Notes under the pieces: generated by a model
Told to the model about the DNA's origin: nothing
Databases searched by the model: none
Seen by the model: only the letters and a program-made list of their open reading frames with translations
Origin: Monosiga brevicollis MX1
Lineage: Eukaryota > Opisthokonta > Choanoflagellata > Craspedida > Salpingoecidae
Reading direction: 5' to 3'
Assembly: GCF_000002865.3 (NCBI RefSeq)
Contig: NW_001865054.1
Span: 118,356 to 182,355, forward strand
DNA length: 64,000 bases
Shown here: piece by piece, positions 29,306 to 55,000 of the stretch
Position numbering within the stretch: position 1 is the stretch's first letter
Layout of the letters: each line of letters opens with the position of its first letter
Program-made: the position numbers and the translations under genes

Positions 29306-29640
29306 TCAGTGTACCCGTGCCACGATCAAGGAACCGTAAACACGCGAGTGGAGATATCATCAAACATCAACACAAAACAAAAGTTATGAACAGCTGTACA
29401 AAACAGTCGTCCTCAAGTCCCATCTGTTTACAACAGCTATTCCATTTGTTGTGCTGACAATTGTGTGGAGCGACGGCTTTGTCAGCATCGCCGCCGCCAC
29501 TGCCCCACGCGGCGCGCGGAGAGGAGAGGAGAGGAGAGGCGGAGGGGCCGGAGGCACGGAACACGAGCCGGTCAGGACCAGGCCGGAGGACACCGTTGAG
29601 GGGAAAGAATACAAAGCAGGGGGAGCAAGGCGGTGTTTTG

Positions 29641-31160
29641 ATGGACAACAGTGTCATGGCAGGCCATCCCTATGGCGTTCAGCCAGAGGGGAATTTGCTC
29701 ACGACCATCGACCGCAAGGCGATTGGACAGGCACAAGCTGGGTTGGGCCTCTTGGCCCTGCTTCCTCACGAGCTCCTGCTTGACATCCTCAGTCGCTTGG
29801 ATCCACGCAGTCTGGCCTGCGTCGCACAGACCAGCCGCTCTCTTTATGCGTTTGCCCATGCCCCTGACCTGTGGAAGGCCTTTGTCATCCGAGCTTGCCC
29901 CCACGGTTTCCAGTTCCGAGGCTCGTGGAAAGAAACCTACACCCACAACGTCCTTGGTCTAGCCATTCGCCATATCCCCTTGCTCTGCCCGCACGTCTAC
30001 TCAGACGCGCTATACGCCACAGCATCTGCACGTAGTGCTGCCACACTTGCTCAAAATCTTGGTGGCGGCCGCCGTAATAACATGACCATCATCCAGGCCG
30101 ATGCGGTTACGCCTGAGCAATTTCGGGCCACTTACGAACATGCCTCCCGGCCATGCTTGATTCGTGGCGCTGCTCCTTGGGTACACGCCAAAGAAGGTCC
30201 CTGGAGCTCTCTCCATGCGCTGACGCAAGCCTGTGGCTCTGTGCGCCTGGACGCCTTTGATGAATTCCAAGGTAGCGTTCAGCTCACCCTGCAAGAGTAC
30301 CTTCAATACGCTCGCCAAACTGCCTGCCTTGACCGAGTCTTGGTCACCCCCGACCCTGTTTGACCAAGACCTCATGGCAGTCCTGGGTGAAACCTTACGG
30401 CCAGATTACCGGTACGTTTGCCTCCGCTGCAATACGGCCCCCAACACTCCTCGCTATGCCCTTATCCCCCTCCCCGGACCACCATTTCGCCCTTTTCAGG
30501 TGGCTTTTAGTTGGACCTCCTGGATCAGGCACCAACTTTCATGTGGACCCAAATTACACCGCAGCTTGGAACACCGTAGTCATTGGTCGCAAACTTTGGC
30601 TCTTGTTCCCCCCGGACATTCTCCCACCCGGTGTTGCCATAAGTGAGGACGGCTGCCGTGTTCTTCAGGCTGACAACGTGACTGCCTGGTTTGAAGAATA
30701 CTACGAGCAACTGCATGAAGATAGCGATCTGAGCATGCATGCCGTTGAGACCATTTGCCAACCTGGCGAAACTGTGTTCATCCCCGCCGGCTGGTGGCAC
30801 CTCGTCCTCAACCTTGAGGTCACGGTGGCGGTCACTCAAAACTATGTTAGCGAGGCCAATCTGCCGGCCTCGCTGGACTTCCTTGCTTCTGGCATTCCAG
30901 CCTACATGAACCACGCTGGGCCTCCAGATCTTCACACCCGTTTTCGCACGGCTTTACAGCAACAGCAGCCCCACATTCTGACACAGTGCCCGAAACGCGC
31001 AAAGACATCACTTTGGTCTCAGTGGAACGCTCCGTTGCCCAATGTCAATAATTCCCCCGAAATCGGGAGTACAGCCTCACATGCTCCCCAAAAGGACTGT
31101 GACTCCACAAAGGACACGCCAACTCCACAAGGAACTTTCTCCTTCTCTTTTGCTTCCTAA
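29641..31160 (+). CDS. F-box and JmjC-domain protein (JMJD6-like), with apparent frameshift
   Basis: Fe(II)/2-oxoglutarate oxygenase domain joined to an F-box, which would link it to an SCF ubiquitin ligase. The ATG at 29641 reads MDNSVMAGHPYG. The F-box is LLALLPHELLLDILSRL then SLACVAQTSRSLY (29750-29860). The JmjC part begins RPCLIRGAAPW. After the intron at 30413-30499, RWLLVGPPGSGTNFHVDPN carries the metal ligands His (30540-30542) and Asp (30546-30548). The distal ligand is His in FIPAGWWHLVLNL (about 30780-30815). Up to about 30333 the frame reads ARQTACLD and then hits a stop at 30361. The continuation SPPTLFDQDLMAVLGETLRP lies in the next frame with no good intron between them. TAA is at 31158. 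Confidence 0.82.
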
Positions 31161-31555: not shown

Positions 31556-34500
31556 CTAAGCGTCAGTGTCTGCTGCGATAAAGTTGGATATGGGTGCTGG
31601 CATGAGATGACCCGCTCGGGTGCGCAGCTGCATGATCAAGGAACCTAGCTCGGTGCAGGCAGGCTCATATTTGATCTCATTGACAAGCCAGAAGCCAGAG
31701 CCGTCCTTCTTCAAAAGATGGTGCGAAATGGCACGATTGAAAATCATACTTAAAGCGTATGAATCCTGGGCACGGTCCCGAACCAGGTAAGTGCCGTCAG
31801 AATCCACAAATTGCGACAAAAGCGCTTCGGCCTCCTGTCGAGATAAGCCCTCATGAAGCCATGGAAACTTCTGTGCGGGGGCGAGTGACGCTGCGGTCGC
31901 CGATGTGATGGTCAGGCCAGCCGGGGCGGGCGCACCGGCATGCGCTGCCACTCGATCAGCTGACACAGCCCGATCTTTACCAAAGGTAGTTGGGCGACGC
32001 GTGTCACCAGGCCCATCTAACCCCACGGCATTGGGCTGATCATACACACCTTGATCCTGGGCTGTCAAGGCATCCTTGGCCGCAATGGCATCGTCTAAAT
32101 CCTCATACATGGAAGTCAATTGATTCGTTGGAGGCGCCCTTTGACTCTGTTGATCTGTGGCGTTGGGCTGATCATACAAGTCGTGCGAGACGGCATTCGG
32201 TTGGTCATAAACTTGTTGTGAATGCTGCACACCCAGGGTGTCGGTGGCATTTGGCTGATCGTATACGTCCTGAGAAGTCGCATTTGGTTGGTCGTCCGCG
32301 TCTTGTGGCACGAACGTAGAGGGGGCATCGACATCGGCATACTCGCTCAACCCGTTGTTGGCTGTCGTACGCCGGTTCGGAAGCGTGTCATACGTGCTAG
32401 CGTCCACGTCTGCATACTCGCTTTGAAGCATCTCAACTTGGGTGACGGAAGAGCGGGCGTCAGAGTCATCGCCCAGCGTCTCGTAGAGCATGCCATTGGC
32501 CACTGAAGGGATGATCGAAGACGCTGTAGTGCCGCGTCCCGACCCCTTCTTATTGGGCACGGCATACAAGTCGAGCACGGCCTGAGGCGTTTCAGTGATG
32601 TTCTCGTCATCAAAATGTGGGAGGGGCTCGTCGGCCGCCGAATACTGCGAAAAGCGCGAGCTCTTGCCGCTACTTTTGTTATTCAATGAGCCCACTTTGC
32701 CGCGACGCACATCCACGTCAACCATGGCGTACGTGCTGTCTTCGGGGGCCGTCTTTGTGGCTTGGTGGCCTTTTCGGCGCCGCACAACCACGATGACAAG
32801 CACTATCAGGAGCACGGCGCCACCTCCTGCCGCAGCTGCAATCACAACGAGCGAATTACTCTCGCTCGAAGATGCATCAGCGGCCACCGCGCTCTGTACC
32901 GAGGAACCCAATGCCAAGCCAAGCTCGGACATCATCTCTGGGGTCAGGCGAGCCAGCACATCATCCGCATCAATCCAGTCAAAATTCGAGTTGTTTCGGC
33001 GTACCCCAAAACCAAATGTCGACGTCAGGGCCCGGCGGCGACCCAAGCTTGATGGCTCAAAAGGCACCGGATAGTCGTCACCAAATGCACCACTTGAGCT
33101 CATTTGCGCTGCAATGACGCGCGCATCAAAATCAATGGAGAGGGTCAGCGTAAGCCGGACAACATAAGCATCTTCAGGGAGCGTATTGGCTGCGACGACA
33201 ATGTCTCGCGTTTGAGACTGTGTGTTGTGGGACGCGTCGGTGGCTTGATAAACTCGGACGTAGCTTCCAGGCACAAACACGTTCACGACACCGCTAAGAT
33301 TAACAGCCACGTGGGAAGCCGAGTTGTCCATAACGGTGTAACCTGGTTCTCGGTAGGCAGTGGCAAATGGCACCGTTACGCGGGCACCGCCTTGAAGGAA
33401 CAACGTAGGGGGCGTTGTGTCCTGAACCTGAACAACGACTGTGGTTTGACCTTCATTGCCAGCTGTATCATTGACTCGGAACGTGATTGTATAATTACCC
33501 AGAATGTCTACCGAGTTGCATGAGGGCAGGTAAATTACAGCAGAGGCAAGCGCGTGAGTGCGACGACCTAGAACAAAAGGTTCCCTCCCACACACCTCAC
33601 CAGGGTCCCGGCCAGACGATCGGCTGACAAGAACAAATGATTGGAAAGGAAATAAAAGGACAAAACAAATCCCTCTTCAGGAAAGAATATGCATCAAGCT
33701 TGGTGCGAAACGAGACATACCCAGGGTAACGTTGCTAGCCAATGGAACAACAACAGTATCTTGCTGAATCACATCGAAGTTGTCATCCACTGATTCGACG
33801 CTGGGCAACTCGTAGGCCGAGTTAGGCGAGAGCTCTTGAACGTCCAGATACTCCAAATATGTGTCGTTTTTTATCAAAGACAGCCGCGAGCGATTGGACA
33901 GATAGATATGAGGCGCAATTGAATCTAAAGACAAAGGTTGATGCACGAGCAGGGCCGGTAAGGGATGCGCTGGGAGAAAGCTGTCTACGGATAACGGGAC
34001 AAGATGTGTTCGTGGGACCCACTGACCCAAGCAGCGACTGCGATTAGCATTGGGCGCGAGGCCCACAGGGCAAGCTACACACTCGCTCATGCTTGACGCG
34101 TCTCGATAGTCGGCTCCTGTACACGGCACACACGACGCTTGATTTCCTGACGGCTCCGTGCCATCCGCACATACGACACATGCGCTCATTCCAGCCGAGC
34201 GATAGCTACCAGCCGCACACGTGTCACAGCCACTGCGCTCCGAGTTGGGGTCTGACCCCAAGGGGCAGGCCGCACACTCGTTCATGCTCGACGCATCGCG
34301 ATATTCGGCTCCTGTACACGACACGCACGACGCTTGGTCACCTGACGGCTCGGTGCCGTCCGCGCACACGGCACACTCGTTCATTCCAGCCGAGCGATAG
34401 CTACCAGCAGCGCAAGTGTCACAGCCACTGCGCTCGGCGTTAAGCTCCGACCCCTCAGGACACTGATCACAATCGGCGCCTGTGTCACAGCCTAGTACGA

Positions 34501-35128
34501 CAAGATCGCCAAACAGAAAGTACTCATCTCGATGCGTTGTACCATAGTCATAATCCACCCTCATAAACTCGGTGTCGGCATGAAGCGGAAAGGTACTCGT
34601 CAAATTGAGCACATTCGAGTTCCGGTCCACCCCCAGCTCCAAGCCGTTGATAGGCGTCTGCATAGTAATAATGCCACCAGAAGGTGCTCCAGTGACATAC
34701 AGGACATCACTAGTTTCCAAATTCTGCTGCTCACCGCCCAGAAATACAAGGGTGACACGAAAATAATCAGGCTGATCATATCCTGATCCGGGTGCGGCGA
34801 ACTTGATAGAGACTGTGATGGCAGATACGTTGCCTTCCAGGGCCACGCCGCGCACGTCGCTCAGAGACAATATGGGTGATGACCAAGTCGAGTCTCCAAT
34901 GTTGCCTGCTTGTTGCAGATAGTTGTCATAATCAAAAAACGCATTGTAGTTGGCGTAGTATTGGTTCGTGATGCTAGGTGCCAAGGACGCGTTGTATCCT
35001 GCGAGATGAATGCGAACCCCACCATAAACTTCAGGAGATTCGCAGTACATGGTCGGGCTACCACCTGCAATCCATTGCGCCTTTATGGCCCGGCAAGTGA
35101 GGAGTAGGGCGAGCACAAGGGCGCGCAT
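31556..35128 (-). CDS. single-pass receptor with GCC-type repeats, Ig-like fold, YDQPNA motifs and cytoplasmic SH2 domain; no kinase
   Basis: The ATG at 35128 gives signal peptide MRALVLALLLTCRAIKA. A domain of about 200 residues beginning QWIAGGSPTMYC follows and is shared with the receptor kinase at 41182-48396. Next come several GCC2/GCC3-type cysteine repeats (34490-34040; CAAGSYRSAGM, CADGTEPSG). After one intron (GTATGT donor at 33719) there is an HYR/DUF5011-like stretch, TTPPTLFLQGGARVTV..YVRVYQATDAS. The membrane helix is near 32770-32870 (AVLLIVLVIVVVRRRKG). The cytoplasmic tail has YADVDA twice, MYEDLDD, four YDQPNA motifs and one DDQPNA in which Tyr is lost. It ends in an SH2 domain (31580-31870): WLHEGLSRQEAEALL, GTYLVRDRAQDSYALSM with the phosphate-binding Arg, HHLLKKDGSGFWL. 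TAG at 31556. It is probably a phosphotyrosine-regulated surface adaptor. Confidence 0.88.
31580..31870 (-). other. SH2 domain of the kinase-less receptor
   Basis: Core WLHEGLSRQEAEALL, then YLVRD (FLVRES equivalent with Arg betaB5), ALSM, HHLLKKDGSGFW and a C-terminal helix LGSLIMQLRTRAG. All expected SH2 elements are present, so binding to phosphotyrosine is likely. Confidence 0.85.
32030..32303 (-). repeat. coding repeat: YDQPNA phosphotyrosine-like motifs
   Basis: Four YDQPNA copies and one DDQPNA copy, unevenly spaced in the receptor tail. pY-D-x-P is a known preference of Crk/Nck-type SH2 domains; whether these tyrosines are phosphorylated is inferred. Confidence 0.85.
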
Positions 35129-35704
35129 TACGTCGTCTCCCAGATTCGGGGCCTTCACAGGCAAAAAAGACTTCTGCGGAATCGCAGACTTGGGGATTGA
35201 CACGGGTTCAGAGCGAATGAGCTGCGAACGGGCGCATGACAAGGGGCCGCTCGTCAACACTGTTCGAGGCCCAGCCTGCAAAAAAAGGGGGCGGAGAAAA
35301 TGGCTGTCAATACAAAAGGCAGCCAGATCCACAAGTGCAGCCGGTGGCGGACAACAAGCGCCACAGAGCTCAGCAGGATATGCAGGTCGAGACACAAGTC
35401 GCCAAGGCAGGACCCGGTGGTGGAGGCAAGGCAAGCAGCGGGGGGACCTCGGCGCGCACCACTCCACACACACACAATCAAGATGTCAAAAATAAACCAT
35501 TCGATGAACTGTAACCGCGCAACCCTTCTTCCTTCCCCCCTTTGATGGGCTACACAAGCTTTTGCTTTATGCCTTTTGCCTTATGCCTTATGCCTTCAAT
35601 TGTTTCAAGCAAGAAGAAGAAGAAGAAGTGTGAATGACGACGCGCAAAGCTGATGATGCGCGTTATTTTCTCTTCTCATTGTTGGGAATGTCAGACAAAT
35701 TTAT

Positions 35705-35740
<36 letters not shown>

Positions 35741-35880
35741 TTCAAACGAGGATTTGGCAGGCGTTGCGGGTCTCAGAATACGATGTGCAATATTGACATG
35801 ACGCGCCATGCATTTATCAATTTCATAGACTTTGCTCTGCAAAACTCCATGTACGCGCTGACGATATCTTTGCTTCGCGT
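35129..35880. other. intergenic region with poly(A) run
   Basis: A 752-bp gap upstream of the SH2 receptor and downstream of EXOC2. It includes CCTTATG-type short repeats (35570-35600), AGA repeats (35611-35627) and an A30 run at 35709-35738. The frame upstream of the SH2-receptor ATG stays open but has no recognisable content. Confidence 0.6.
35709..35738. repeat. poly(A) run, about 30 bp
   Basis: An uninterrupted A tract about 140 bp downstream of the EXOC2 stop codon. No flanking target-site duplication was noticed. Confidence 0.97.
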
Positions 35881-38800
35881 CTACACTTCCACGTCGGATG
35901 AATCGACGTCTTCTGGAATTCGTGCGTCCTCAAAACACAGCAACATCAAGGCGTTTTCTGCCCGGAAGGTTGTCAACGCTTCAGCCACCGCCCTGCAGAA
36001 TGAGAAGGAGATATGTCACCAGGTTGTAATGAGAAAATCAGCAACAGTGGCTTGGGGCCAAGGTGGGGCGTAATGAGGCGAGCGAATGAAATACTTACGG
36101 TGGTGGCTGCTGCCAGTCCAGTGCTTTGCCACGGCCTGCGCTCGAGCCAGGGACAGATGGCATGCGGCGGCGAGTTTGCATGCCTGGCTGGGGCAGAGCG
36201 CGTCGTCCACTCGATCCCGTGCTCGAGCTGGAGCCCGGCGCAGCACGCGGGGCGGCGTTGGCGCAGCGTGCTTGCAGGCGGTTGAAGCAAGGAATCCACA
36301 CGGATGGTTCCCGATCATACGGCGACAAGACATCCTTGAAAACAAGCAGCTCAAGCAATACCTGTTCGCCCACTCGCCCTGCGGTAAGCTCTGCGTGGTC
36401 GAGCGCCACCAGTACTTGGCGAGCTAGCGCCTGTGTCAGCGCAGCAAGCAACCGGTCGACAAATCTATAAACAGATCGGAAGGAGGAATAAATAAAAAAA
36501 AAAAAAATAAAAAAAAGAGAAGAAAATTGATATCCGAAACAGAGCAGTCGAAAAAACCATGAGACCGTATCAGAAATTGTCGCTGCACAAAAACGCATGT
36601 GACCATGTGTTTTGCACTTTTTGCAATCACCGAGCCATGAGCCATGGTGGCCAACGCAGTGTGCTGTACTCACGTGCGGGCTGTTTCAAAGATAATGCCA
36701 TGCCAGCAAACCAGTTCAAACAGGATGAGATTCACGTAGCTGCGTGGGCGATAGGCGTTGGGCAGCAGTAGCTGTTGCAATCCATCTTCTAGCGCTGCCG
36801 AGACGCTCTGTGTCACTTGCTCCACAAAAGCCTCTTGAACTTGGCTTTGCAGCTCGCTGAACCGCCCCATGGTCGCCTATTAGATCATTGGGTGCAAGAC
36901 AGCTTCAAGCATGAGCTTGCTCCGCTCATTCGACCGCCGTAGTACGAAAACATGAGAGCACGCGAAAGATTAAAGCACGCACATCATAAATGGCCGTTAG
37001 ATCCAGCTTGAGTGTGTCATATTGTTCCATGAGCACACGCGCCACGGAATCACGTGTATACGCCGCGTTGGCCAAGACACAGAGCAGCCGATGGCGAATG
37101 GAACGGGCGGCGCTATCGGTGGGCAGTCCGCGTACGGACTCGCCTGCAACCTCGGTATCAAGATCATCGATCTTGAGCAATGCATCTGCAAAAACCAATC
37201 CTTCCAGACAGGCGTGAAACTTGAGCAAACAGGAACACATGAGGTGCTCGATGTCTGCAGCCAGCTCGCCCAATGTCACGGCGTTTTGCCCCGAGCCGTA
37301 GAGTTGCAGAGTTTGGAGAGTTCCGCCCATAATCTTGGCAAACCGCTCCGGCAAGGCTGTATGGTCGCACGTGGGCATAGGGACCCAGGTTTCTTGTAGA
37401 CCCAGCGAAGCAATGTCTGCCGCCACAGACCATGTGAGCACTAGCTTAAAATCAAGGCAAGTTTTGCAAACCCACCCACAACCAAACATCACGACAATAG
37501 CAATTTTTCTCAAAAAAAGGGGGGGAAAAAAAGGTTCCTACCTTCTTCGGCCACCTGAAATGACACCCCAATGGCCCAGAGGTACACCTTGGTCACAGAC
37601 TTCTCCAATTGACGTAGCGAAACTCGAGGCAGGGCCAATGCAGAAGCAACACGATAGCACCCGCTATGGCAGTCCATAAACTACGTTTGAGACCATAGAC
37701 ACATAAACGGTGTTTTCTTGCAAGAGTCTGCATGCCCACTGACCTGAGTGTGTTAATCATGGTGGGTAGCGAGGCACGTGCTTGTGCAGCATCAAAGCGG
37801 GAGGAAGTACAGGCCTCGATAAATCGCGTGTCCAAGAGCTCACAGAACTTTGTTACATCTTCTGTCACAAACTTGATGAGCTCAAGACGGTGATGTTGGT
37901 TGCGAACCTCCTCCTCGGAACGATCTTCATCATTGGAAACATCACTGAACATGGTTGAGCGCCGACTAGGCGGTTGACACGACCATCCAAGTGACCACGC
38001 CGAGCCCAAGAAGGAAAGGGTGAGCTGAAAAAAGAAAAAGAGCAATGAGCACAGGTTACCATCAACATACCGTGAGCGGCGACGGCGCATGCCAGAGGGG
38101 GTCGAATTGGCCGGCTCTCGCGAAGCAAAGCCCGTGGCGCTGCTGTCGGGATAGTAACGATTGCTCAGGTTCCACAATGCAGGTAACTGTTCAATGAACA
38201 CGCGACAGATGTTCTCCACAAATTCAATCTGAGCAGGCTGCGTTGGGGCCTAACAAAGCCAAGATGAGGGGAAGAGGAAGCCGTCGACAAGTTTAAAAGT
38301 AGCGTGTGGAAAAGTGGAGTAACGGGACACCACACGCTGAACATAAGGCCAGGACGCATTTGTGACAACGCCACGCATTCATTCAACTGTGCAATACTAC
38401 CTTCTCGTCTTCCGGGGCGAAGGCAGAGTCAGTGACGGACTGCCGCATCGATGTTACAGAGGTGCGCCAGGAAGATACGCTTGAATACCGCGAGGATCGC
38501 TTCGAGGAGGAATTGCTGCCATTCATCGAGGTCCTGATCGTTGGTGTGATGCAAGCGCCTGTCAGAGTCAAACAAAAAAAGGTTCCCAATAGTCAAAAAT
38601 AAAAGAACGTACTTCCATAATAGGAAATCTGTGCCGCTTGCACGACGGCGGGAGCCAACTGAAACGGCTGCTTTAAGTTGAGACCAACGGCGTTTGACGT
38701 TAGTGTGTCTCTCGGACTGTCAAAGATCAAGTTGGGAGACAGGAAATGAGCAAAGAGAAATAGCTTGTGGTCACATTTTTTGAAGAAAGAGAGGCGTTTG

Positions 38801-39123
38801 AACAGGACGCGGCCAGTCACCTCGTCTAAAACGGCTTCAAGGCGTGTCGAGTGATGGTCGAGGAGATGTTGCAAATGTTCGTGCAGCTTTTCCACGCAGT
38901 ACCAGGCCGGTTCGCTCTCTGGACGCAACACTTTGATGTACTCAACCAACAGTTCCTTACTAGCCAGCGAGGTCTGAGGGTCTCCCAACTGTGCATAGAG
39001 TCGCGCCTCGACGTCTTGCATAATCTCTTCAACATGGGCCATGATCTGCGGTATCGCCCAAAAAGTCGATGATTTGGCGCAATCCATCCCATACATAAGT
39101 CGTGTTCACATACGGATACCAAA

Positions 39124-39181
<58 letters not shown>

Positions 39182-40885
39182 TACCTTCTTGAAAATGGAA
39201 AAGGACGACGTTCCGAAAAGCTGACGCGCTTTGCGATAGTCCTGAATGACCGAAGACCAATTCTCGTTCTCGATGCCATTGCGCACGCTTGCGGGCAGAT
39301 TGAAGAGGAAGCGACTGGTGGCAATCATGTTGAGGGCGTGACGATTACTAGCAGCCGCATCTTGTCGCTCCAGCAGGGGGTCAAAGAGCTCGTGAGTCGT
39401 CTGCTCAAGATCGATCAAGACCTTGTCCACGTTGTCGGTGATTTTCGTGACATTGTAGCGGCGTTTGTGACTGGCAATGGCTTCATGCACGTCGGATAAA
39501 GCCTGCACACCATCATTCAGAGGTGGCACAAATGGCAAGAATGAGAAACTGCAATGTGAGCATGAGGCGCAGAACAGCCGGCGCACCACGCACAGAAAAG
39601 ACGCCCACAAAGACGGGGGCGTTCACGTGAAGAAGTTTGTGATAGGCGGCATCGGAGCGGTCCTCCTGCTGACGAAGATGATTGAGCCCTGCGAGCACAG
39701 CAGAACACCCATCAGTGACCATGGTGTGGCCAGCAGCCACCGAGGTCTGGTTGTTTTGACGTACCAACTTCCAGCTCATTGATGCCCAGGTTGCTGTAGG
39801 TCGAGGCAAAAAGCAGAGCAGGCTCAAACTTGGCCTCGGACATGACGCTTGACTTGTTCTTGTACTCGTGTTGCAACCCCTTGATAATCTGTGATAAAGA
39901 TGTGAGGGCCACGGGGGTGAGGGACACACAATAAAATTTGAGCACTTGCAGAGGTTGACAGAGACAAAGATGAGCGTGAACAACAAATATTGGAGGGATG
40001 TTGCATCAATGTACTGATTGCTAAGCATGTGTCAAAAGAAGGCTGATCTGACCCTGTTTTGGCGCCGCCTCTCGGTGTCGTCCACAACGGCGGACCCAAG
40101 GACGCCCAGTGGATCGCGATCCACATGTGCAGCAGGGTTGTTGGCACGGTCTCCCTGGTCCATCGGTAGTTCTTCCTTCCAGGTCGAGCATTCTTCAAAA
40201 AAGCCTGCAGACGAAGAGAGAGCGTGAATGTTGAGCGCTGAAAAAAGGGCTCAAATCATTGCACCAACATGCATGGCGTGTTCATCAGGTTGGCGCCAGC
40301 CAAGAACGAACCAACGGTGTGGTCATGGTCATCCTCAGGAGTTTCGACAATGTCAAAGGTGAAGCTAATGGGGCAAATGCCTTGGCCCCCTGATGTGGTG
40401 GTTATGATGATGGGCCCAGAGATACGACACGGAGGTGTGGTAATGCGAATCTTCGACGAGCTCTCATACTGCAGTGAGTCGCGCACAGATATGCCGCTCA
40501 CCGTCACATCTGCAAGGAATTTGGCAAAGCGTCAGGTTTGAGCAGAGCAACACGGGCAGGTTCTTGGCATCAAAAAAAAAAAAGAGAAAGAGAGAGGGAG
40601 AGGGAGAGAGAGAGAAGGAGCTACCCCGTCATTGACAAACCGATGATGTCGTCAAGACTCTCGCCCAGCTCGGTACCACGCACTGTGACAACGGTGCCGC
40701 CCGTCTAGTGGTCGCATGACAGAGGAGATGAGGAGATCTGCTGACTTGTCCAGTGGTGCAAGCCCTGTGCGCTTCAAACTTGATTCCGTGTCAATGAAAC
40801 CCCTCAAATGGGCATGTGATACACTTGCACATCATACCGATGGTCCAAACGAGGGCCGCAGACCCGAGATCTCCGGTGCCGCCAT
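35881..40885 (-). CDS. EXOC2: exocyst complex component 2 (Sec5)
   Basis: Exocyst subunit that tethers secretory vesicles to the plasma membrane; the animal protein binds Ral through its N-terminal IPT/TIG domain. The ATG at 40885 reads MAAPEISGLRPSFGPS, joined to TGGTVVTVRGTELGESLDDI and then VTVSGISVRDSLQYESSSKI, IIITTTSGGQGICPISFTF: the TIG domain. Downstream exons encode ALSDVHEAIASHKRRYNV, NMIATSRFLFNLPASVRNGI and SSVIQDYRKARQLFG (39200-39500), then ARLYAQLGDPQTSLASKELL and PAWYCVEKLHEHLQ. These match Sec5 (RFKFLFNLPLNIERNIQKG, DYEKAKSLFG, DPAWQCIG). The last exon reads AVAEALTTFRAENALMLLCF and ends in TAG at 35881. A CA repeat sits in an intron at 39125-39179. The gene separates the two paralogous receptors. 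Confidence 0.9.
39125..39179. repeat. (CA)n microsatellite in EXOC2 intron
   Basis: About 27 uninterrupted CA units directly following an exon ending SIFKK. Confidence 0.98.
40583..40619. repeat. GA-rich tract in EXOC2 intron
   Basis: Purine tract of GAGA and GGGAGA units in the intron between the two halves of the TIG domain. Confidence 0.85.
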
Positions 40886-41181
40886 CACAGGCGATGATGC
40901 ATGGATAACATGAAAAAAAAAAATCCAAAAAAGCTTTGGTTTTCAATCTTCTGACATTTGTGTTTGTGGAGGTTGGTGGTTTTGGCAGAGAAGAACATTC
41001 GCATGGTGTGTGCTTTTCACAACATCAACTATGACTGTGACTCTTGACTGGAGATGTTATGGTGCGATGATGATGATCAGAAAACATGCAATGCCTGCAC
41101 TGCATTGGATGTATGACTAGGAACCCTACTGAAAAACTAAAAGGCCGCCTCTTGGGGCTGGCAGCTGTCCGAAATCGTGTC

Positions 41182-43175
41182 CTAAATGTCAAGGTCATCA
41201 TGGATGTGGTCATACACGGTGCCGTCATCTTGCAAGAGCAACGACGGTGCAGCTCGCTCTGTATCGCGAGACACTGGGTGGTCGTAGATGGTGGCGCGGC
41301 GGTCTTGGGTGCCCGCACGAGAGCTAAAAAACCCAAAACGAGCCATGCTTCCGGATCGGCTGCGTATGATCTTGGTCGTGCCTGAGTCAGCAGCGCAAGA
41401 TTCATCCTCCTCATTGACTATGCCAGTGTCCATCTTAGGCCCCTAAAAAAGGGAATGATTCGGTACATCCATCAACACAATTGCGCGCAGGGGATGAAGT
41501 CATTCGCTTTGCTATCCCAGGTCCGAAGCAAAAGTCAAACACGAGCGCAAGCACGAACCTCGGCCATCGTTTGACCATTGCTGTCTTGGTTGTCGTACAT
41601 GTCCTCAATACATGTAATTGGAGACTCGCGGGTGGCATCAGGCATCTGCGCCTCAGTCATTGTTTGACCGTTGCTGTCCTGATTGTCGTAAAAGCTTTCC
41701 CGGATCTGAGACTCGTTGGCACTTGTCCTGGCGCCAAGCATTTGATTGCTGCCACTAGCACTTGGCCCCTGCGATATTTCAAATCCAGAACAAAGTGAAC
41801 TTTCGGAGACACCTCAGCCTCGAAAGTCAGGCGTAGCTACGCACCTCGTTTAGAACTTGGCCATTGCTGTCCTGGTTATCGTAAATGACGCTTGGGACCT
41901 GCGTCTCATCTTTGATGTCAAGAATGTCTTCGTAGATTTGGGATTCGTTGGCCTGCGCTTCCTGGCTTCTTCCCTGCTGGGTCACGGGCATTCAAATGAA
42001 TAAAAAACCAGGCACAGCCCCTAAGCTCGCGCAGACTAGGATTCCGAGTGCCAACCTGAAGCACCACTTGCTGGTTGTTATTCGGCAGATCATCAATGTC
42101 TGCATAAAGCTGAGATTCATCATCATCCACGTGCGTGCCAAGGACTGAGCTTCTCTCGTTTCCCATCCCCGTCTGCAAACACAGCAATGGGTCAGCACCC
42201 GATGAGGTGATGCATGTAAAAGCACGAGAATATGACGGCAAGGGTGGTCGCGTACCTCAACTGCTGCCGAGCTGAGGACGACTTCTTTGCCGTACACTTG
42301 GTATGATTCGTATCCCACGGCATTTGCTTCGGCACAGAAAAGTTTGTTTTCAGCTGCCAGCACCTATAAATTCCCTCATAATCCATGAGATCGCTTGATA
42401 CCATCAATAGCACAGACTGCGGTGTCTGATTCTTCCGGAGGAGGCGCTCAAGGCATTGTAGTAGATTGGAAGCATGGACACACCTGGCCATCATCGTTAG
42501 CGTCCTCAAAGTCGTCATAGATGAGTTGCGTTGCACTAGCACAAAAAGGGGTTTTCTCCATGCGCTGTCCCTATACGTCCAGATCCGATACACACACGCG
42601 CAGGAAAAAAAATGCCAGTTGTGAACCTCCCAAGAAAGAAACAGACAAGGCTGTCACAATGACATGAATGTGCCACAATCGCACGAACTGAGCCCAGCGA
42701 GCAAGTGAGAGCCCCAAACTCTGTCTGCGTATATACCTCAGGCGCCGCTGAGCCCAGATTGCCCGCGTCGCCGTACACGTCCTCATACAACTGAGGCTTC
42801 TGTGCGCCTTCATTTGCGCGAAACATCCTGTTTTCGGCCCACAGCCCCTATCATTGTGACACTACGTGTGAGACTGGCAACCCATCAATCTCCACACTTC
42901 AAACAGCTCCACATTTGTTTGAATCACCCCAAGCAAGAGATGGTGACACAATAGCAGGCAAACAAGACACGCAATACACACTTCGAGCATCTGGCCATCG
43001 ACTTGGTTATCGTAGGTGTTGTCTCCGGTAAGTTGTGTCTCGTACACGCTCTGGTCCAGCCACACTTCAACGCTGCTGGTGCCTTGTACGGGCGCACGGA
43101 TGCCCGAGCTCTCACTAGCGTCTGAGGCGTCCGCAATCGCCTCGTACGTCACTTCTCCGCCTGAGTCGCGTACCA
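41182..43175 (-). repeat. array of phase-0 exons encoding phosphotyrosine-like motifs
   Basis: Successive exons start with GLWAEN, GQRMEK, VLAAEN, TGMGNE, GRSQEA, GPSASG and GPKMDT. The preceding exons end in complete codons followed by GT (LE|GT, PE|GT, GQ|GT, VE|GT, LQ|GT, NE|GT, AE|GT). Each exon carries at least one acidic Tyr motif. The common phase and similar openings suggest exon duplication. Confidence 0.8.
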
Positions 43176-46100
43176 TGGATGACATATTCTTGTCAGAGCT
43201 TAGGCTTGTCAAGGCGCTCACGAGCGCACTAAAGGTTGGTCGCTCTTCAGCGTGTATTGACCAGCACTGGCGCATAATCTCGTCGGCCTTTAAAGGCGCT
43301 TGGCTTGGCATGGGTAGCCGATGGCCAGACTCCAATAAGCCCAAAATCTGGGCATTTTGATACGCCTGATACGGGGTTCCTCCCATTGAAAAAACCTCCC
43401 ACATGGTCACGCCAAAGGCCCAAACTGCAGGCATGTTAAGAATGTTAGGCTATGAAACACCTGGGGCGCAGCCAAGAAGTGGGTGCTTTGAACATACCGT
43501 CGGATTTGATTGAATAAATGCTCCTTGCGAGGCTTTCTGGGGCCATCCACTTGATCGGAAACCTGTCAAGTGTCGTTTCGTACTGTTCCCCATCGAGCGC
43601 CCGAGCCAGCCCAAAATCGCTAATCTTGCACGACAGTTGCTGGCCCACCAGCACCTAAATGACAATGCACCAGCGCCAGTGAGTTGCTGGTACAAACAAA
43701 GCCCAGCCATCAGCCGCACACAAACAGCAGGACTGAAGCCACGTTGCTTGAAACATGGCCACAGATGGCACGATCAGGATTTGGCAAGGCAGTGCAACCA
43801 TACGTTCCGAGCGGCGAGATCGCGGTGAACAATTTTTTTCTGCTCCAAAAACGCCATGCCATTGGCAATCTGACAACAAAAGTCGAGCAACTGGGCTGCA
43901 GAGAGCGGCTGCGGCCCACTGTCAGGCGCGCGGCACTCGCGCAAGTAGTCACGGAGGTTTCCCAGCTCAGCCAGCTCAACCAGCAATATGGGCGGCTCGT
44001 CATGAAGACAGTGCCCAACAATGCCAATAACATTGGGATGTTCGCCCATATCCTTCATCACAGTCATCTCCGATAAAAAGGCTTGGCGTTCTGTCGATGA
44101 TGCTTGTACCCTGAGCTGTTTGGCGGCACAGCTTTGCTCCCCGTAGCTGTGGCGGTTGCGAAGCCAGGCCTGAAAGACTTCGGCAGACGCACTGTTGCCC
44201 AACTTTTCGCCCAATCGCACGCGCTGCCGCTCCACCTCCCAAACTTCAGTGCCGTGTAGCTGCAGCAAGTCGTACGGATTCTCCAAAACCAAAGGAACTG
44301 CTGCTGTCTTGCGCTTGCGGCGACGTACGATGACAAGTGCGAGCAGGAGGAGCAAGACGATGCCACCCACCCCAGCGCCGATAACAACCGGCGAGGAAGC
44401 GTCATACGCCGGCTGTGCCTGACTTGCACTCATGGCCGCATCGTTGACTTCGCAATCCTGGCCGGAGAACCCTCTGTCGCACTGACACACATAGGATGAT
44501 GTTCGAGGGTTCAAATCGGGACTTGCAGCACCAGGCGTACAGGTACCGCGACCGTTGCAGCGCCCATTACATGCCTCGGGCAAAATTGCACAATTGTTGC
44601 CTTTCAATCCGGCCGGGCATTTACAGCGCGCACCGCGCCGCGAGACTTCGCACTCGCTACCAAAGCGACATGGGTTGGGATCACAAAAACTCTGGCAGCC
44701 CACGCTGTCTGGTCCCGTTTGCGCATCGCCCGAGTAGCCCGTGCTACACATACAGCTCACAATGCTATCACTTGGACCAGACACGGTGCAGTTGGAGTTG
44801 GGTGCCACACACGGCCGAAAGCTGGCTAAACCGAGGTTGTCGGGGGTGACGATCTCAGGCTCATACACCGCATGCTCAATATTACACACATATGTGTCCG
44901 ACACACAGGCACCATGACTGTTAATAAAATATCGGATGCCCAGTGCAGCAATGTTGGACGGGGTGACACATGCGCTGGGGTTCACGCATGCGTGAAGGAT
45001 TGCATTGTATTGCAGTGAAGCATCGTTGCATTCACAAGCAAACCCGCCTTCAGCATTGACACAGGTACTGTCATCTGAACAACCGGGCCCTGCAGCCAGA
45101 CACTCATCAATGTCTTGGCATCCGCTTCGCAAGCTGACACGATTTGCGCGTGTAACTAGGCTTTTGTTGTAGGTGAAGCCCACGCCACAGTCCTTGATGC
45201 TTTGAACGCAGAAATACTCGGACGTTAGTTCTGTGCCAGGGGCACACGTCTCGGGAATGAAGCAGCCGCGATTGGGGACATACACTTCGTTTTGAAGGGG
45301 ACAGACCACGGGCCAGGCGCACGCAAGGGCGTCATTGACAAGCGTGGTAATGGCATCGTCTGGACAGCGCACACTGCCTTCCTCGCTCACGCACACGCCG
45401 TTTGAAACAGCAAAGCCATCAGGACATGCCATGTCCGAGATGATACACAGGCTGCCTTTCAAGGAGGAGCCGGCGGGGCACATGGCACCACACAAGGCTG
45501 TATCGCAGCCAGAACGATCAAAAAAGGTGGTGTTGATGTTGTCCCACCCTCGAACCCCGAGCTGATCTGGTAGGCCGCCGAAGGAAACCGATTGCAAAGC
45601 ACAGCAGGTGGACTTCTGATGAGCTTTGGTTACGGCCATTGTGAAGGACGCCACTGAAGTATTGGGTGTTTGCCCATGAGACGATGTCATGTGTACACGG
45701 TCTATCACGAGACCCGAGACTGCTGTCGAAAGGGCCGCCTCGAGGGCGTCTTCCAGGTCGCCAGCCAGCTCGTGCGTCGCCACTGCTGCAGACACTGAGA
45801 ACGTGTATGACACACCAATGGTGACAAGAGGACACGAGGTGACATTGCCAATGCCTGCCTTGGCGTGTCCAAATGGACATGCCGTACAGATGCCCTCTGA
45901 GATAAAGTAGTCAGCCTTGCACGCACACGCACTGCTGCCTTCCGAAGCCGTACCCATGTGTGCTGCGCAAGGCTGGCAGGTAGCATCCGTGTGGTTGCCC
46001 TGAATTTGTGCCGTGTTGACGGGACAGGGTACGCAGACGGGTGGTTCTGCATTAAATGTCCCAGACACCATGCAGGTCAAGATGGCGGGACCATCCAAGT

Positions 46101-48396
46101 ACGTGCCTGCTGGACACGAAAAAGCAAGAGTATCGCCATAGGCAGCTGCCGTGTCATTGCTCTGCGCATTTGTGGCTGGGAGATAATTGCAAGAGCCGCA
46201 ACCGCTGCGCTCGGCATTGGGCCCCTGCCCTGCCGGGCAAGTCATACATTGATTCATGCTCGATGCTTGCCGATACTCTGCGCCTGCGCACGGGGCGCAC
46301 GATGCCCGATCACGTGCCGACTCGGTGCCGTCTGCGCACACGACACATGCGTCCATCACAGCCGTGCGATATGTCCCGAGATCGCAAGAACCACAGTCAC
46401 TGCGCTCAGTGTTGGGCTCTGATCCCACAGGGCAGGTCGCACACTGGTCCATGCTCGATGCATCGCGATACCCGGCTCCTGAACACGGCACGCACGACGC
46501 TTGGTTTCCTGACGGCTCGGTGCCGTCCGCGCACACGGCACACTCGTTCATTCCAGCCGAGCGATAGCTACCAGCAGCACACGTGTCACAGCCACTGCGC
46601 TCCGAGTTGGGTTCTGAGCCCACAGGGCATGCCGCACACTGGTTCATGCTCGATGCGTCGCGATATTCGGATCCCCTGCACGGTACACACGACGCTTGGT
46701 TCCCTGCTGGCTCCGTGCCATCAGCGCACACGGCACACGCGCTCATTCCATTTGAGCGATAGCTACCAGCAGCGCAAGTGTCACAACTATTGTGATTCGG
46801 GTTCGGCTCTGAGCCCACAGGGCATGCCGCACACTGGTGCATGCTCGACGCATCGCGATACTCGACTCCTGTACACGGCACGCACGACGTGCGATCGCCT
46901 GACGGCTCGGTACCGTCCGCGCACACGGCACACGCACTCATCCAAGCCGCACGATAGCTGCCGGCATCACAGGTGTCACAGCCACTGCGCCCGGCGTTGG
47001 GCTCCGAGCCCACTGGACACGCCGCACAGGCATTCATTGCGCTTGACCGGTAGGTTCCTAAATTGCAAGTGTCACAGCTACTGCGCTCAGCGTTGGGCTC
47101 TGATCCCACAGGGCATGTCGCACACTGGTTCATGCTCGATGCATCGCGATACTTGACTCCTGTACACGGCACGCATGACGTGCGATCGCCTGACGGCTCG
47201 GTACCGTCCGCGCACGCTGCACACGCCCCCATTCCAGCCGAGCGATAGGTTCCAGGATTGCAAATGTAACAGCCACTATGATCAGCCTTGGGCGTCGTGC
47301 CTACAGGGCACGCCGCACACTGGTCCATGCTCGATGCATCTCGATACCCCAGCCCAGTACACGCCACACAGGAGGCTCGGTTGCCTGTAGATTCGGTACC
47401 GCTCGCGCATGCGGCACAGAAGCTCATGGCACTGGACCGATACTTGCCAAGATCGCAAGTGTCGCAACCACTGCGCTCAGCATTGGGCAGTGTGCCCACG
47501 GGGCACGCTGCGCAAGTCTGCATGTTAAACGCATTGCGATACTCCAGCCCTGTGCAAGCCACGCACGAAGCTCGGTCATTCGACGACTCTGCGCCGTCAG
47601 CGCAAGCAACACAGGTGCCCATGGTACTTGAACTGTACGTGCCATCAGCGCAAGGCTGGCACTGCGTACGAGCAGCGTTGGGCTCCTTGCCTGCTGGACA
47701 GAACTCACAACCAGCACCGGCGGTGCAGCCCAAGACTACCAGATCGCCAAAGAGGTAGTGCTCATGCTGATGGGTCGTCAAAAATGAGTATTTTATTTGC
47801 AAATACTTGGTGCCCGAAGGAACGGAGAAGGTATTCTCAAAGCTGATCACGCTCGGATTCTTCGCCTCGCCCAGCTCCAAGTTTGCAATGGGGATCAACA
47901 TCAAAATGCGCCCGTCTCTGATTCCTTCCACGTACATGACATCCTGGACTCCAAGCGAGCTTCGAGCGCCATTCATGAAGGTAATTGTGACCCGGAAGGT
48001 GTCGGGTGGATTGCCGTTAAACGACAAATCGTACTCCTTTCCTGGCGCCGCAAACTTGCCAAAAACAGTCACAGTCTCCACGCTACCCTCTAGTGCGACA
48101 CCGCGGACGTCGTCCACGGATAGTACAGGCGATGACCACGATGAAGACCCGATCTTTCCCGCTTGCTGAAGGTAGTTGTCAAAATCGAAAAAGGCATCGT
48201 AGTTCTTGTAGTACTTATTCGAGATGGTGGCATCTCGTGCTGCATCATAGCCTGCGAGGTGATATTCCACCCCGTCCTTCATAGCTGGCTGCCGGCAATA
48301 CAACGTTGGGCTGCCACCTGCAATCCACTGGGCGGCACTGGGAGTCACCGCCAGGACCAAAGCAGCAAGCAGTGGCCAACCCATTTCTGCTGGCAT
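41182..48396 (-). CDS. receptor tyrosine kinase with GCC-type repeats, Sushi, EGF domains and multi-tyrosine tail
   Basis: Single-pass receptor kinase. The ATG at 48396 (or 48384) gives signal peptide MGWPLLAALVLAVTPSAA, then the shared domain starting QWIAGGSPTLYC. About a dozen GCC2/GCC3-type repeats follow (47720-46200), a Sushi domain (46195-46025), further Cys-rich sequence, a calcium-binding EGF (DIDECLAAGPGCSDD, about 45100) and two more EGFs (44700-44450). The membrane helix (GAGVGGIVLLLLLALVIV) is near 44333-44396. Kinase: glycine loop GEKLGNSASAEVF is degenerate; CAAKQL holds the lysine; IVHRDLAARN, SDFGLARAL, WMAPESL and WAFGVTMWEVFSMG are intact, so activity is likely. From 43170 down to 41182 the tail has tyrosine motifs on separate phase-0 exons: TYDNQVDGQ, YEDVYGD, IYDDFED, YESYQVYGK, YADIDD, three YDNQDSNGQ, YDHP and YDHIHDD. 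TAG at 41182. Confidence 0.92.
43170..44262 (-). other. tyrosine kinase domain of the receptor
   Basis: Split over three exons. The glycine-rich loop is degenerate (G-N-S-A-S-A), while the VAIK lysine, HRDLAARN, DFG, APE and alphaF motifs are kept. YETTLDRFPIKWMAPESL gives one Tyr in the activation loop. Confidence 0.9.
46200..47720 (-). repeat. coding tandem repeats: GCC2/GCC3-type cysteine modules
   Basis: Repeated modules with consensus CADGTEPSGDRTSCVPCTG, YRDASSMNQCAACPVGSEPN, C.TC..GSYRSAGM.AC. Neighbouring units are also similar in DNA. The longest near-identical block recurs in the SH2 receptor at 34320-34440. Confidence 0.9.
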
Positions 48397-52066: not shown

Positions 52067-55000
52067 ATGAGCAAAAGCAAGCAGGACCGCAAGCTTTGTA
52101 CGTGCCGCACAGCCTGTTTGTTGCGCCAAGTCAGCACGCTATGGAAAGCTGTACACACCGGCCAGACACTCACCACCGCTCGTCCATTCACCTAATCAGA
52201 CGATGCTGTCAAACGCGGCAATCGAGGCCAGGTCGAAAAGCTGCTCGATGCTGGTGCCGACCCTGCTGCTCCGGTTGGCAAACACGGTAGGCCCATCTCA
52301 CGCGTCAAGCACCAATCAATCACCAATCAATCCCATTCTTTGCCAAGCATGCCAAAGTTTTCTAGCATGACAAGCCTCGTGGGTGCTCAAACACGCTTTT
52401 GGTCCCTGATCGCCGCCTCCTGAATGATCACAGGCCGCACAGCCATGATGAGAGCCACCGAAAAGAACTACGCCGAAATTGAGTTTTTGCTTGCCCGCCG
52501 TAGCAGCTCAGCCACCCCTTCGCGTGTCGACAGCACCAACAGCACCCAATCTGGCCTCAACAGTACGTCTCGAGCATCTTCCAGGGCATCACCAATCCCC
52601 CGCCCAATGGTTGCGCCAGGTCCTGCTGGGCCTCAGGCACTTACTCTCACGCACAACCGCCGCATTTAGCCATCAAACCATCCTCCTCAACCAAGCAGGA
52701 GAAGAAGACGCGCGAATCAAAGCGCTCGCAGCGCAACTCAGAGTCGGACGTTGAAGCCCTCGGTGTCTATACAGAGATTGGTAATCAGACCGCAACACTG
52801 CGCAAGCCCCTTGACGATGGCGAGGTGTGTGCCCCTTCCTCGCCTTTGACGCAACTCACTTTCGCTCTTTGCCATGCGTACGAGGCATACGAGGATCTAT
52901 CATGCCATCGACGCGGCCTGCTAGCCCATTTTCTGTCAGCACACACCACTAACTTGCTCAACTTAATTGCCACGGCATAGAGCTACCTTGATGTGGAACA
53001 AACCAGAAAGGTTGATGAGGATGGCGATGACACACCGCTGTATGCCAACGATGAAGTGGATGCGCCATCCCCGGAGGCCGTTCAGCGATCCCAATCCACG
53101 AACAGCATGGGACTGCCCCCGCCCGTGGCCAAGCGCGAATCCATTTGTGAGTTTTTCCACGTCTTCCCATTGTGCTGACGTCATCGGCTAGCCCTCACCC
53201 CAACTCGCAAAGTAGTAGGCATGCCTGCCGCCACGGCCACCGGTCAGCTCGAGCTCAACAAAAAATGGGAACTTGATCGATCCAAGATTGTACTCGTACG
53301 TGGCGCGTTTGTTTGTTTGTTTGTTTTTTTCGTTCGACGTGACTTGCCATGGGACCAGCGTCAGCCCATCTCATGTTTTCATCGCTGCGCGTGACTTTGA
53401 GTAGAAACAAAAGCTTGGTGAAGGCCACTTTGGCGTCGTTTATGCTGGTGAGGCAAAGAAAATCATGCCGGACCAAGCCGTGACGCCCGTGGCTATCAAA
53501 ATGCTGCAAGACTCCAGCTCCGAGGCCACCAACGATTTTATGAAGGAAGTCAAGATCATGCAGACCATTGATGGCGACCAAAAAATTGTCCGACTCTTGG
53601 GTATTTGCACTCGCGAAACACCGTTCCTGATGGTGTTGGAGCTGATGGCCAAGGGTGACTTGAAGACCTTGCTTCGCAACTCCCGCCCCAAAACCTCAAA
53701 GCCGTCAGCACTCTCCCCTCGCCGCCTGGCCCTCATCGCTGCGGACGTGGCCGATGGCATGGCTTACATTGCCGGTCTGCGCATTGTGCACCGTGATCTT
53801 GCCGCTCGCAACTGCCTCGTGAAAGACAACTGGGAAACTCGCATCGGTGATTTTGGCCTTGGTCGTGACACTTATACCAGCGAGTACTACAAGATGCAAG
53901 GCTCCAACCCCCTACCCGTCCGCTGGATGTCCCCGGAGGCCATTGAAGATGGCGTCTACACCACACAATCTGATGTCTGGTCATATGGCATTGTCATTTA
54001 CGAGCTCGTGACTTTTGCCAAGATGCCCTACGCTGGATTGAGTAACATGGAGGTCGTTGAACGCATTACCGATGGATACCGCATGCCCCAGCCCAAGGGT
54101 ATGTCGCCGCGATGTTTTGTCAGACCTTTCAACACGTGGGCCCAACCTCACCGCAGCACCTCGTCTCACACTCTCTTCGACTTTATGCCTCGAATTCCGT
54201 CCTTGACGCAGAATGCTCGGACGAATTCTACGCGCTCATGACCCGCTGCTGGGATGAACCCGAGGATCGCATCAGCTTCAAGGAACTGCATGAAAAGGTA
54301 CATGGCATGGGATGCCACCAGTCTTGTTTCGTGGTGGTTTCATCATGACGTATTGGCACACATGTTGCTCATCAGACACTTCTTCCTCACCGTTTTTGTC
54401 GCACGACCCAGTTTACTGCGCTAGCGGCGACGCTTTCTGATGAACCCATTCGCAAGCAAAAGCGCAACGGCAGTCGCGAGCCCACTTCACCGGGTGTTGA
54501 CGATGTGGATGCCGAACCTGAGGCAGCGGCATCGAGCCCTGCTCCACCTGCAACTGCAATTGCAGGCAGCAGCGATTATGAGCCACCTCAAGATGCTTCA
54601 CGTACTGGTGCTGGCATGCCGGCCCAAGCAGGGGGTGGGGATAGCGATGACGAAGACACGGTTCCTTCTGCCTATGGCGTGCATTATCAGACACAGTCAA
54701 GCGCACAGGACTCTGCCGCCAATTCAGCCATGTACACGGACACGAGGCTCCAGGGACTCTCGAATATGCAAGCAGCCATTGCCAAGGCTCAGGAAGAATC
54801 GGAGGTGCAAGATATTGTCCGAACGAGTGGATCAACCTCAACTCTACGCTCACGTCAAGCCCAAGAGGAGCTGGCCCTGCAGGTCGACACCAATTCCAAC
54901 GTCAAGCCCCGTGACCATCGTCCGTCCTTTGGTGCCGCCGCTGCTATGCGCAGCCAATGGGTAGGTTTGGTTTGTTTTTTGTTTTGTTTTGTTTTTTTGT

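What the first reader, a model, noticed from the sequence alone, without database searches (positions are those of the whole stretch)
31556..48396. Two paralogous receptors, one with a tyrosine kinase and one with an SH2 domain
Both proteins begin with the same domain (QWIAGGSPT[L/M]YC..) and GCC-type repeats, but inside the cell one has a kinase and multi-tyrosine tail (41182-48396) and the other has tyrosine motifs and a C-terminal SH2 domain with no kinase (31556-35128). They are on the same strand, 6 kb apart, with only EXOC2 between. A shared ectodomain joined to complementary writer and reader modules suggests the pair co-assembles, with the kinase phosphorylating motifs that the SH2 member reads.
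Basis: partly seen in the sequence, partly recalled or inferred. Interest (0 to 1): 0.82.

Follow-up and report, generated by a model that had tools for sequence, protein, structure and literature searches.

The report
Kinase and SH2 receptors sharing ectodomains
In a single-celled relative of animals, the same outer receptor part is found on one surface protein that can write phosphotyrosine marks and on another that can read them, which suggests a paired-receptor arrangement that has arisen by repeated copying of the outer part.

Summary
On the minus strand, 48396-41182 encodes a receptor tyrosine kinase (RTKB-like) and 35128-31556 a kinase-less transmembrane receptor ending in an SH2 domain. 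Their first ~207 residues are 56% identical (no Pfam family found); EXOC2/Sec5 lies between. The genome is Monosiga brevicollis (exact match of a published primer).

The neighbour is not the SH2 receptor's closest partner. An RTK on contig C46, with an intact glycine loop, shares its first 1.1 kb at 93% DNA identity (N-domain dS 0.036). A second pair exists: an RTK on C38 and a tandem-SH2 receptor on C55 share 7,044 bp at 95.6% identity, ending about 24 residues before the membrane helix. The window receptor is one of at least nine kinase-less TM-SH2 receptors here; eight have TM and SH2 in one open frame.

The motif YDxPNA occurs 25 times genome-wide: 17 in the tails of four SH2 receptors, none at the six close RTKs. 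The SH2 therefore probably reads its own class's tails, not the RTK tail (inference). Co-assembly is plausible but untested. TM-SH2 proteins are in print (cadherin type). I found no report of ectodomain sharing with RTKs, but two key 2008 papers were not held.

The parts
33721..35128 (-). SH2 receptor exon 1: signal peptide, shared N-domain (~35077-34455), GCC/ELAPOR/ephrin-receptor-like repeats, start of first Ig/HYR-like repeat (by eye)
33568..33720 (-). inferred 153-bp GT-AG intron (GTATGT...TTCTAG) of the SH2 receptor
   Evidence: frame and splice consensus only; no transcript
31556..33567 (-). SH2 receptor exon 2, one open frame: Ig/HYR-like domain, membrane-proximal region, TM helix, tyrosine tail with four YDQPNA motifs, C-terminal SH2 with FLVR arginine, stop
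34032..35127 (-). block 93.3% identical at DNA level to the RTK gene on contig C46, from the start codon to the end of the GCC array
36926..39622 (-). EXOC2/Sec5 gene between the two receptors (Pfam Sec5 in 3 of 4 stretches scanned: 36926-37537, 38593-39105, 39029-39622; 40256-40531 gave none; full gene extent not modelled)
43804..48396 (-). RTK exon 1: signal peptide, shared N-domain (~48330-47704), many GCC repeats, SCR-like (by eye) and EGF modules, TM helix, kinase N-lobe to HRDLAARN; glycine loop GNSASAEV
43498..43654 (-). RTK exon 2 (DFG, activation loop, WMAPES)
41182..43424 (-). RTK exon 3 (C-lobe, RM2-like GEVTYEAIAD) and further small tail exons with YDNQ, YEDx and YDHP tyrosine motifs; exact tail introns not resolved

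Best explanation
The pair is one visible part of a larger M. brevicollis receptor set in which related extracellular parts (N-domain and/or Cys-rich plus HYR/Ig-like repeats) are attached either to an RTKB-type kinase (writer) or to a kinase-less tail with repeated tyrosine motifs and one or two SH2 domains (reader/scaffold). Shown: the architectures; near-identical ectodomain stretches in two RTK/SH2-receptor pairs with unrelated tails; and co-occurrence of YDxPNA repeats with SH2 domains in the same polypeptides. Inferred: a shared ligand or homotypic ectodomain contact brings an RTK (for the window gene, most likely the C46 RTK) together with the SH2 receptor; the kinase phosphorylates the YDQPNA repeats of the SH2 receptor; its SH2 binds those marks in neighbouring SH2 receptors (or in cis), giving a phosphorylation-dependent cluster or a gate that competes with cytosolic SH2 proteins.
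For: N-domain homology 56%, E=5.8e-68. SH2 receptor against C46 RTK: 93.3% over 1,096 ungapped bp; about 98% over the first ~780 bp; chance identity upstream of the ATG. Second pair, C38 RTK against C55 tandem-SH2 receptor: 7,044 aligned bp at 95.6% (38 gaps), ending about 24 residues before the TM; dS 0.062, dN/dS 0.24 over 681 codons. TM and SH2 in one open frame in eight genes. YDxPNA: 25 places against 5 for the reversed pattern; 17 of 25 in four SH2 receptors (C12 2, C38 6, C41 4, C47 5), none at the six close RTK genes. The SH2 has the FLVR arginine, and its best solved relative is the ZAP-70 C-terminal SH2. Published precedent: an RTKB2 tail domain is phosphorylated by RTKB2 in vitro and, phosphorylated, binds the MbSrc1 SH2 domain (PMC3584944, passages).
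Against: No ligand, expression, localisation, interaction or phosphorylation data. In pair 1 only the membrane-distal part is shared: the SH2 receptor then has HYR repeats that the C46 RTK lacks. Three of the SH2 receptors searched (C38:404k, C47:764k, C21) have no near-identical RTK twin. YDxPNA is not universal: C21 lacks it, and C47:764k and C55 have variants only; the motif was chosen after seeing it in these receptors, so its enrichment is descriptive. The SH2 tree does not resolve the receptor SH2s as one clade. The adjacent RTK may be catalytically weak. In the RTKB2 work no complex of the RTKB2 tail with MbSrc1 was detected by co-immunoprecipitation in cells (PMC3584944, passage).
Confidence: 0.42

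Rival explanations
1. Ordinary modular shuffling and segmental duplication: ectodomains are copied onto whatever tail lies downstream; RTKs and SH2 receptors then work independently, perhaps sensing the same ligand but not assembling with one another.
For: Extracellular regions of the nine RTKB members are described as diverse (PMC3584944, passage). Pair 2 is a 7-kb genomic block that begins in an upstream gene, as plain segmental duplication would give. C15 and C20 RTKs are 99.3% identical over the 3,174 bp compared, an RTK-RTK duplication.
Against: Both near-identical RTK/SH2-receptor blocks join a kinase to an SH2 partner, and the pair-2 ectodomain is under purifying selection (dN/dS 0.24); but two events are few, and no genome-wide count of RTK/other-tail sharing was made.
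Confidence: 0.33
2. The SH2 receptor is an inhibitory partner or decoy: it binds the RTK ligand with the same ectodomain but cannot signal, or caps phosphotyrosines with its SH2.
For: Near-identical ectodomain stretch without kinase; analogous to vertebrate paired receptors (recalled).
Against: A tyrosine-rich tail with repeated motifs (15 tyrosines after the TM in the window SH2 receptor, three of them inside the SH2) suggests an active scaffold rather than a passive decoy.
Confidence: 0.15
3. Gene-model artefact: the SH2 or kinase exon belongs to another gene, or the twin pairs are assembly chimeras.
For: No transcript data; C55 has a run of N between the TM and SH2 frames.
Against: TM and SH2 share one open frame in the window gene and seven others. 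Twin copies differ by 4-7%, so each is a distinct locus; swapping arms between them would still leave one RTK and one SH2 receptor.
Confidence: 0.04

Closest known systems
M. brevicollis RTKB family (RTKB2; PMC3584944, passages read)
   Same: Kinase family with Cys-rich, SCR and EGF ectodomain modules, single TM, tyrosine-rich tail; window RTK has GEVTYEAIAD where an RM2 peptide of RTKB2 reads AEEVYEAIAD.
   Different: Window RTK carries the unclassified N-domain and a degenerate glycine loop; no kinase-less SH2 partner is described in the passages read.
Transmembrane cadherin-SH2 proteins: M. brevicollis gene model 11339 (PMC3082566, passage) and a cnidarian VWA/cadherin/Ig/EGF/TM/SH2 protein (PMC2362128, passage)
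   Same: Membrane-spanning ectodomain protein with a cytoplasmic SH2; locus L032 (cadherin, TM, SH2) carries the FSNPMYA sequence quoted for model 11339.
   Different: Ectodomain is cadherin, not N-domain/GCC/HYR; the passages do not mention sharing an ectodomain with an RTK.
Syk/ZAP-70
   Same: Best solved-structure match of the window SH2 is ZAP-70, at its C-terminal SH2 (7.3e-14); six relatives have two SH2 matches.
   Different: No kinase; membrane-spanning; single SH2 in the window gene; no ITAM-like spacing seen by eye.
Vertebrate paired activating/inhibitory receptors such as KIR and PILR (recalled, not checked here)
   Same: Near-identical ectodomains on functionally different tails, kept alike by recent copying.
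   Different: Here the two tails are kinase and SH2 rather than ITAM-adaptor and ITIM; unrelated ectodomains; opposite signalling is not shown.

Membership tests
Receptor tyrosine kinase, RTKB family (window 48396-41182) | Tyrosine kinase domain related to RTKB members | tested here: inconclusive
   PF07714 and one TM; a composite kinase probe finds this gene among 6 close and 4 more distant loci, near the nine RTKB members reported (PMC3584944). No RTKB sequence was available, so the family name is assigned by analogy.
Receptor tyrosine kinase, RTKB family (window 48396-41182) | RM2 tail domain | tested here: inconclusive
   GEVTYEAIAD resembles the RM2-6 peptide AEEVYEAIAD; the RM2 alignment figure is not held.
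Active tyrosine kinase | Glycine loop, VAIK lysine, HRD, DFG | tested here: inconclusive
   AAK lysine, HRDLAARN, DFG and APE present; glycine loop GNSASAEV lacks two of three glycines.
SH2 domain | Pfam SH2 above cut-off with the FLVR arginine | tested here: met
   PF00017 40.5 bits against cut-off 21; GTYLVRDR.
SH2 domain | Phosphotyrosine binding | not testable with these tools
   needs a peptide binding assay
Transmembrane SH2 receptor without kinase | Signal peptide, TM and C-terminal SH2 in one gene, no kinase | tested here: met
   TM and SH2 in one 706-codon frame; no kinase by Pfam. Signal peptide by eye, and its exon joined by an inferred intron.
Cadherin-SH2 (gene model 11339 type) | Cadherin repeats | tested here: not met
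   Window gene has TNFR_ELAPOR1, Ephrin_rec_like and Bact_surface_Ig-like matches; only a sub-threshold Protocadherin hit.
Syk/ZAP-70 family | Tandem SH2 plus kinase | tested here: not met
   one SH2, no kinase
Paired receptors | Near-identical ectodomain on different tails | tested here: inconclusive
   Met over the whole ectodomain compared for C55/C38 and over the membrane-distal 1.1 kb for window SH2 receptor/C46 RTK; the adjacent window pair is only 56% identical.
Paired receptors | Opposing or cooperating signals from one ligand | not testable with these tools
   no ligand or functional data

The most novel reading that the evidence does not exclude
M. brevicollis has a two-part receptor system that predates animals: matched ectodomains are repeatedly copied between RTKB kinases and kinase-less SH2 receptors, so that one ligand brings writer and reader together, and the readers polymerise on their own phosphorylated YDxPNA repeats. 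This would be a membrane-anchored equivalent of RTK plus SH2 adaptor, with paired-receptor-like turnover.
Probability: 0.25. Interest if true: 0.78.

Novelty: new variant of a known kind. Interest (0 to 1): 0.56.

Why it matters
How phosphotyrosine signalling was wired before animals is an open question. Twin receptors whose ectodomains are nearly identical but whose tails carry the kinase in one and the SH2 in the other give a direct, testable case of writer and reader being paired through the outside of the cell rather than through a cytosolic adaptor. The YDxPNA/SH2 co-occurrence gives a specific binding prediction.

Tried and rejected
Structure of the N-domain: AlphaFold on the two window sequences gave mean pLDDT 45, too poor for a fold search, so none was run.

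SH2 gene tree (22 SH2 domains): receptor SH2s not resolved; 3 of 19 inner branches starred; not used as evidence for a single origin.

Neighbour pair as recent duplicates: rejected; 56% aa identity in the N-domain, and the DNA matches above 72% between the two genes lie in the Cys-rich repeats.

SH2 exon belonging to another gene: rejected, because it shares an open frame with the TM helix.

C33:537785-542155 as a further TM-SH2 receptor: its C-terminus looks SH2-like to my eye, but Pfam does not support it, so it is not counted. It was, however, included in the summed gene length used.

Rows dropped from the TM-SH2 survey: hydrophobic stretches in L014, L025 and L062 did not look like type I membrane helices and were not counted. 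One search examined 35 loci, some of them overlapping (for example L009/L010); one, L031, gave no frame. With the seven receptor genes this is only part of the 114 SH2 matches, so nine is a lower bound. 'No kinase' for the relatives refers to the stretches scanned.

Not read because not held: the two 2008 PNAS papers asked for. Absence of a report of RTK/TM-SH2 ectodomain sharing rests on the ten searches of an open-licence library only, and on passages, not whole texts.
Full report
WHAT IS THERE. Both genes are on the minus strand. The SH2 receptor runs from ATG 35128 to the stop at 31556: exon 1 is 35128-33721, a 153-bp GT-AG intron is inferred, and exon 2 is 33567-31556. The protein has 1,139 residues: signal peptide (by eye), a ~207-residue N-domain without a Pfam match, Cys-rich repeats (TNFR_ELAPOR1, Ephrin_rec_like), an Ig/HYR-like domain (Bact_surface_Ig-like, 5e-14), one membrane helix, a cytoplasmic part with 15 tyrosines (12 before the SH2, four of them in YDQPNA), and a C-terminal SH2 (2.9e-10). 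The RTK runs from ATG 48396 to the stop at 41182: the same N-domain, many GCC repeats, EGF modules, a membrane helix, a tyrosine kinase interrupted by two short introns, and a tail of small exons with YEAIAD, YDNQ and YEDx motifs. EXOC2/Sec5 is between them. The organism is taken to be Monosiga brevicollis: 22 bases of a published RTKC8 primer match the genome exactly, at two places, with no match for the reversed control (primer from PMC10263333, passage).

THE SHARED DOMAIN IS RARE. Four copies of the N-domain were found in the 39.5-Mb genome: the window RTK, the window SH2 receptor, a gene on C46 and a gene on C37. The C46 gene is an RTK with canonical GNGAFGEV, HRDLAARN and DFG motifs. The C37 gene has the same kind of chassis (N-domain at 27-30% identity, Cys-rich, HYR, membrane helix) and a tyrosine-rich tail, but its long exon shows no kinase or SH2 by Pfam. 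So one chassis carries three kinds of tail.

THE TRUE TWIN. The SH2 receptor and the C46 RTK are 93.3% identical over 1,096 ungapped bp. Identity starts at the start codon, averages about 98% for the first ~780 bp, is 82-90% in the next four 60-bp bins of Cys-rich repeats, and is at chance level upstream and beyond. N-domain dS is 0.036 over 200 codons. Only this membrane-distal part is shared; the SH2 receptor continues with HYR-like repeats, the C46 RTK with more Cys-rich repeats and then its helix. The neighbouring RTK is 56-57% identical to both in this domain, and its kinase is 64.5% identical to that of C46. The direction of copying is unresolved for this pair.

A SECOND PAIR. The RTK on C38 and a receptor with two SH2 domains on C55 share 7,044 aligned bp at 95.6% identity (38 gaps). 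The block starts inside an upstream gene, covers the Cys-rich and HYR exons and ends about 24 residues before the membrane helix; beyond it 60-bp identity falls to 0.20-0.43. Over 681 ectodomain codons dS is 0.062 and dN/dS 0.24. A third RTK (C51) resembles the C38 RTK both in two HYR stretches (75% over 123 aa, 68% over 79 aa) and in the TM/kinase stretch (63% over 210 aa), although its membrane-near ectodomain is different. This makes it likely, not certain, that the ectodomain belonged to the kinase lineage and was copied to the SH2 receptor. A run of N separates the TM and SH2 frames in C55, so that link is inferred.

A FAMILY OF KINASE-LESS SH2 RECEPTORS. Eight genes carry a membrane helix and a Pfam-supported SH2 in one open frame: C41 (window), C38:404k, C12, C47:794k, C47:764k, C21, C30 (cadherin) and C54 (Cys-rich). 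C55 makes nine. Five of the eight have two SH2 matches, as does C55. Of 114 SH2 matches in the genome only part was examined, so this is a lower bound. Near-identical RTK twins were found for two of the seven HYR-type members (C41, C55). C38:404k, C47:764k and C21 were searched with 341-396 aa of ectodomain and have none. C12 and C47:794k were not used as queries.

THE MOTIF. YDxPNA (TAYGAYNNNCCNAAYGC) has 25 matches against 5 for the reversed pattern; 17 lie in four SH2-receptor genes and none at the six close RTK genes (a motif split by an intron would be missed). The other 8 are single hits, not far from the control level. Tandem copies are not independent; counted as loci, 4 of 12 fall in the SH2 receptors against 0.01 expected. 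The motif was defined after I had seen it in these tails, so the figure describes how confined it is and is not a test. It points to the SH2 receptors' own tails as the natural target of their SH2 domains; that is an inference.

MECHANISM. Best reading: a ligand or ectodomain contact common to the twins brings kinase and SH2 receptor together, the kinase marks the YDxPNA repeats, and SH2 domains cross-link the receptors. Shown: anatomy, identity, block ends, co-occurrence. Not shown: ligand, assembly, phosphorylation, binding. The published RTKB2 work (PMC3584944, passages) shows that such a tail domain is phosphorylated and binds an SH2 domain in vitro, but the authors could not detect the complex of tail and MbSrc1 by co-immunoprecipitation in cells. 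For the window pair itself, the degenerate glycine loop of the neighbour makes the C46 RTK the better candidate writer.

KNOWN OR NEW. RTKB kinases and TM-SH2 cadherins are in print (PMC3584944; PMC3082566 and PMC2362128, passages). Sharing of near-identical ectodomains between RTKs and TM-SH2 receptors did not appear in the listings of ten library searches or in the passages read, but the two 2008 papers on M. brevicollis phosphotyrosine signalling that I asked for were not held, so it may be reported there. I call it a new variant of a known kind.

Noticed in passing
window 53405-54238 (+): A further tyrosine-kinase-like domain (PF07714, 1.4e-77) about 5 kb from the RTK start, on the other strand.
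   Followed up: no
window 29458-31160 (+): F-box plus JmjC gene next to the SH2 receptor; a JmjC/cupin-like gene (by eye, not scanned) also lies upstream of the C38 and C55 receptors, and the duplicated block begins in it.
   Followed up: partly
L007 (C37:248.9k-253.2k): Receptor with the distant N-domain, HYR repeats and a tyrosine-rich tail, but neither kinase nor SH2 found: a possible pure substrate receptor.
   Followed up: partly
L041 and L042 (C15, C20): Two RTKB-like genes 99.3% identical over 3,174 bp on different contigs: recent duplication or uncollapsed copies.
   Followed up: no
L044 (C29) and L048 (C52): Short frames with a membrane helix and tyrosine-motif tails (GYLD, YDN, YMEP) and no kinase or SH2 seen in the frame (by eye).
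   Followed up: no
G000:C21:294549 and 304881: The RTKC8 primer matches twice, 10 kb apart, suggesting a tandem copy of RTKC8.
   Followed up: no
window 32280-32299 (-): One copy of the YDQPNA repeat in the SH2 receptor has an acidic residue in place of the tyrosine (DDQPNA).
   Followed up: no
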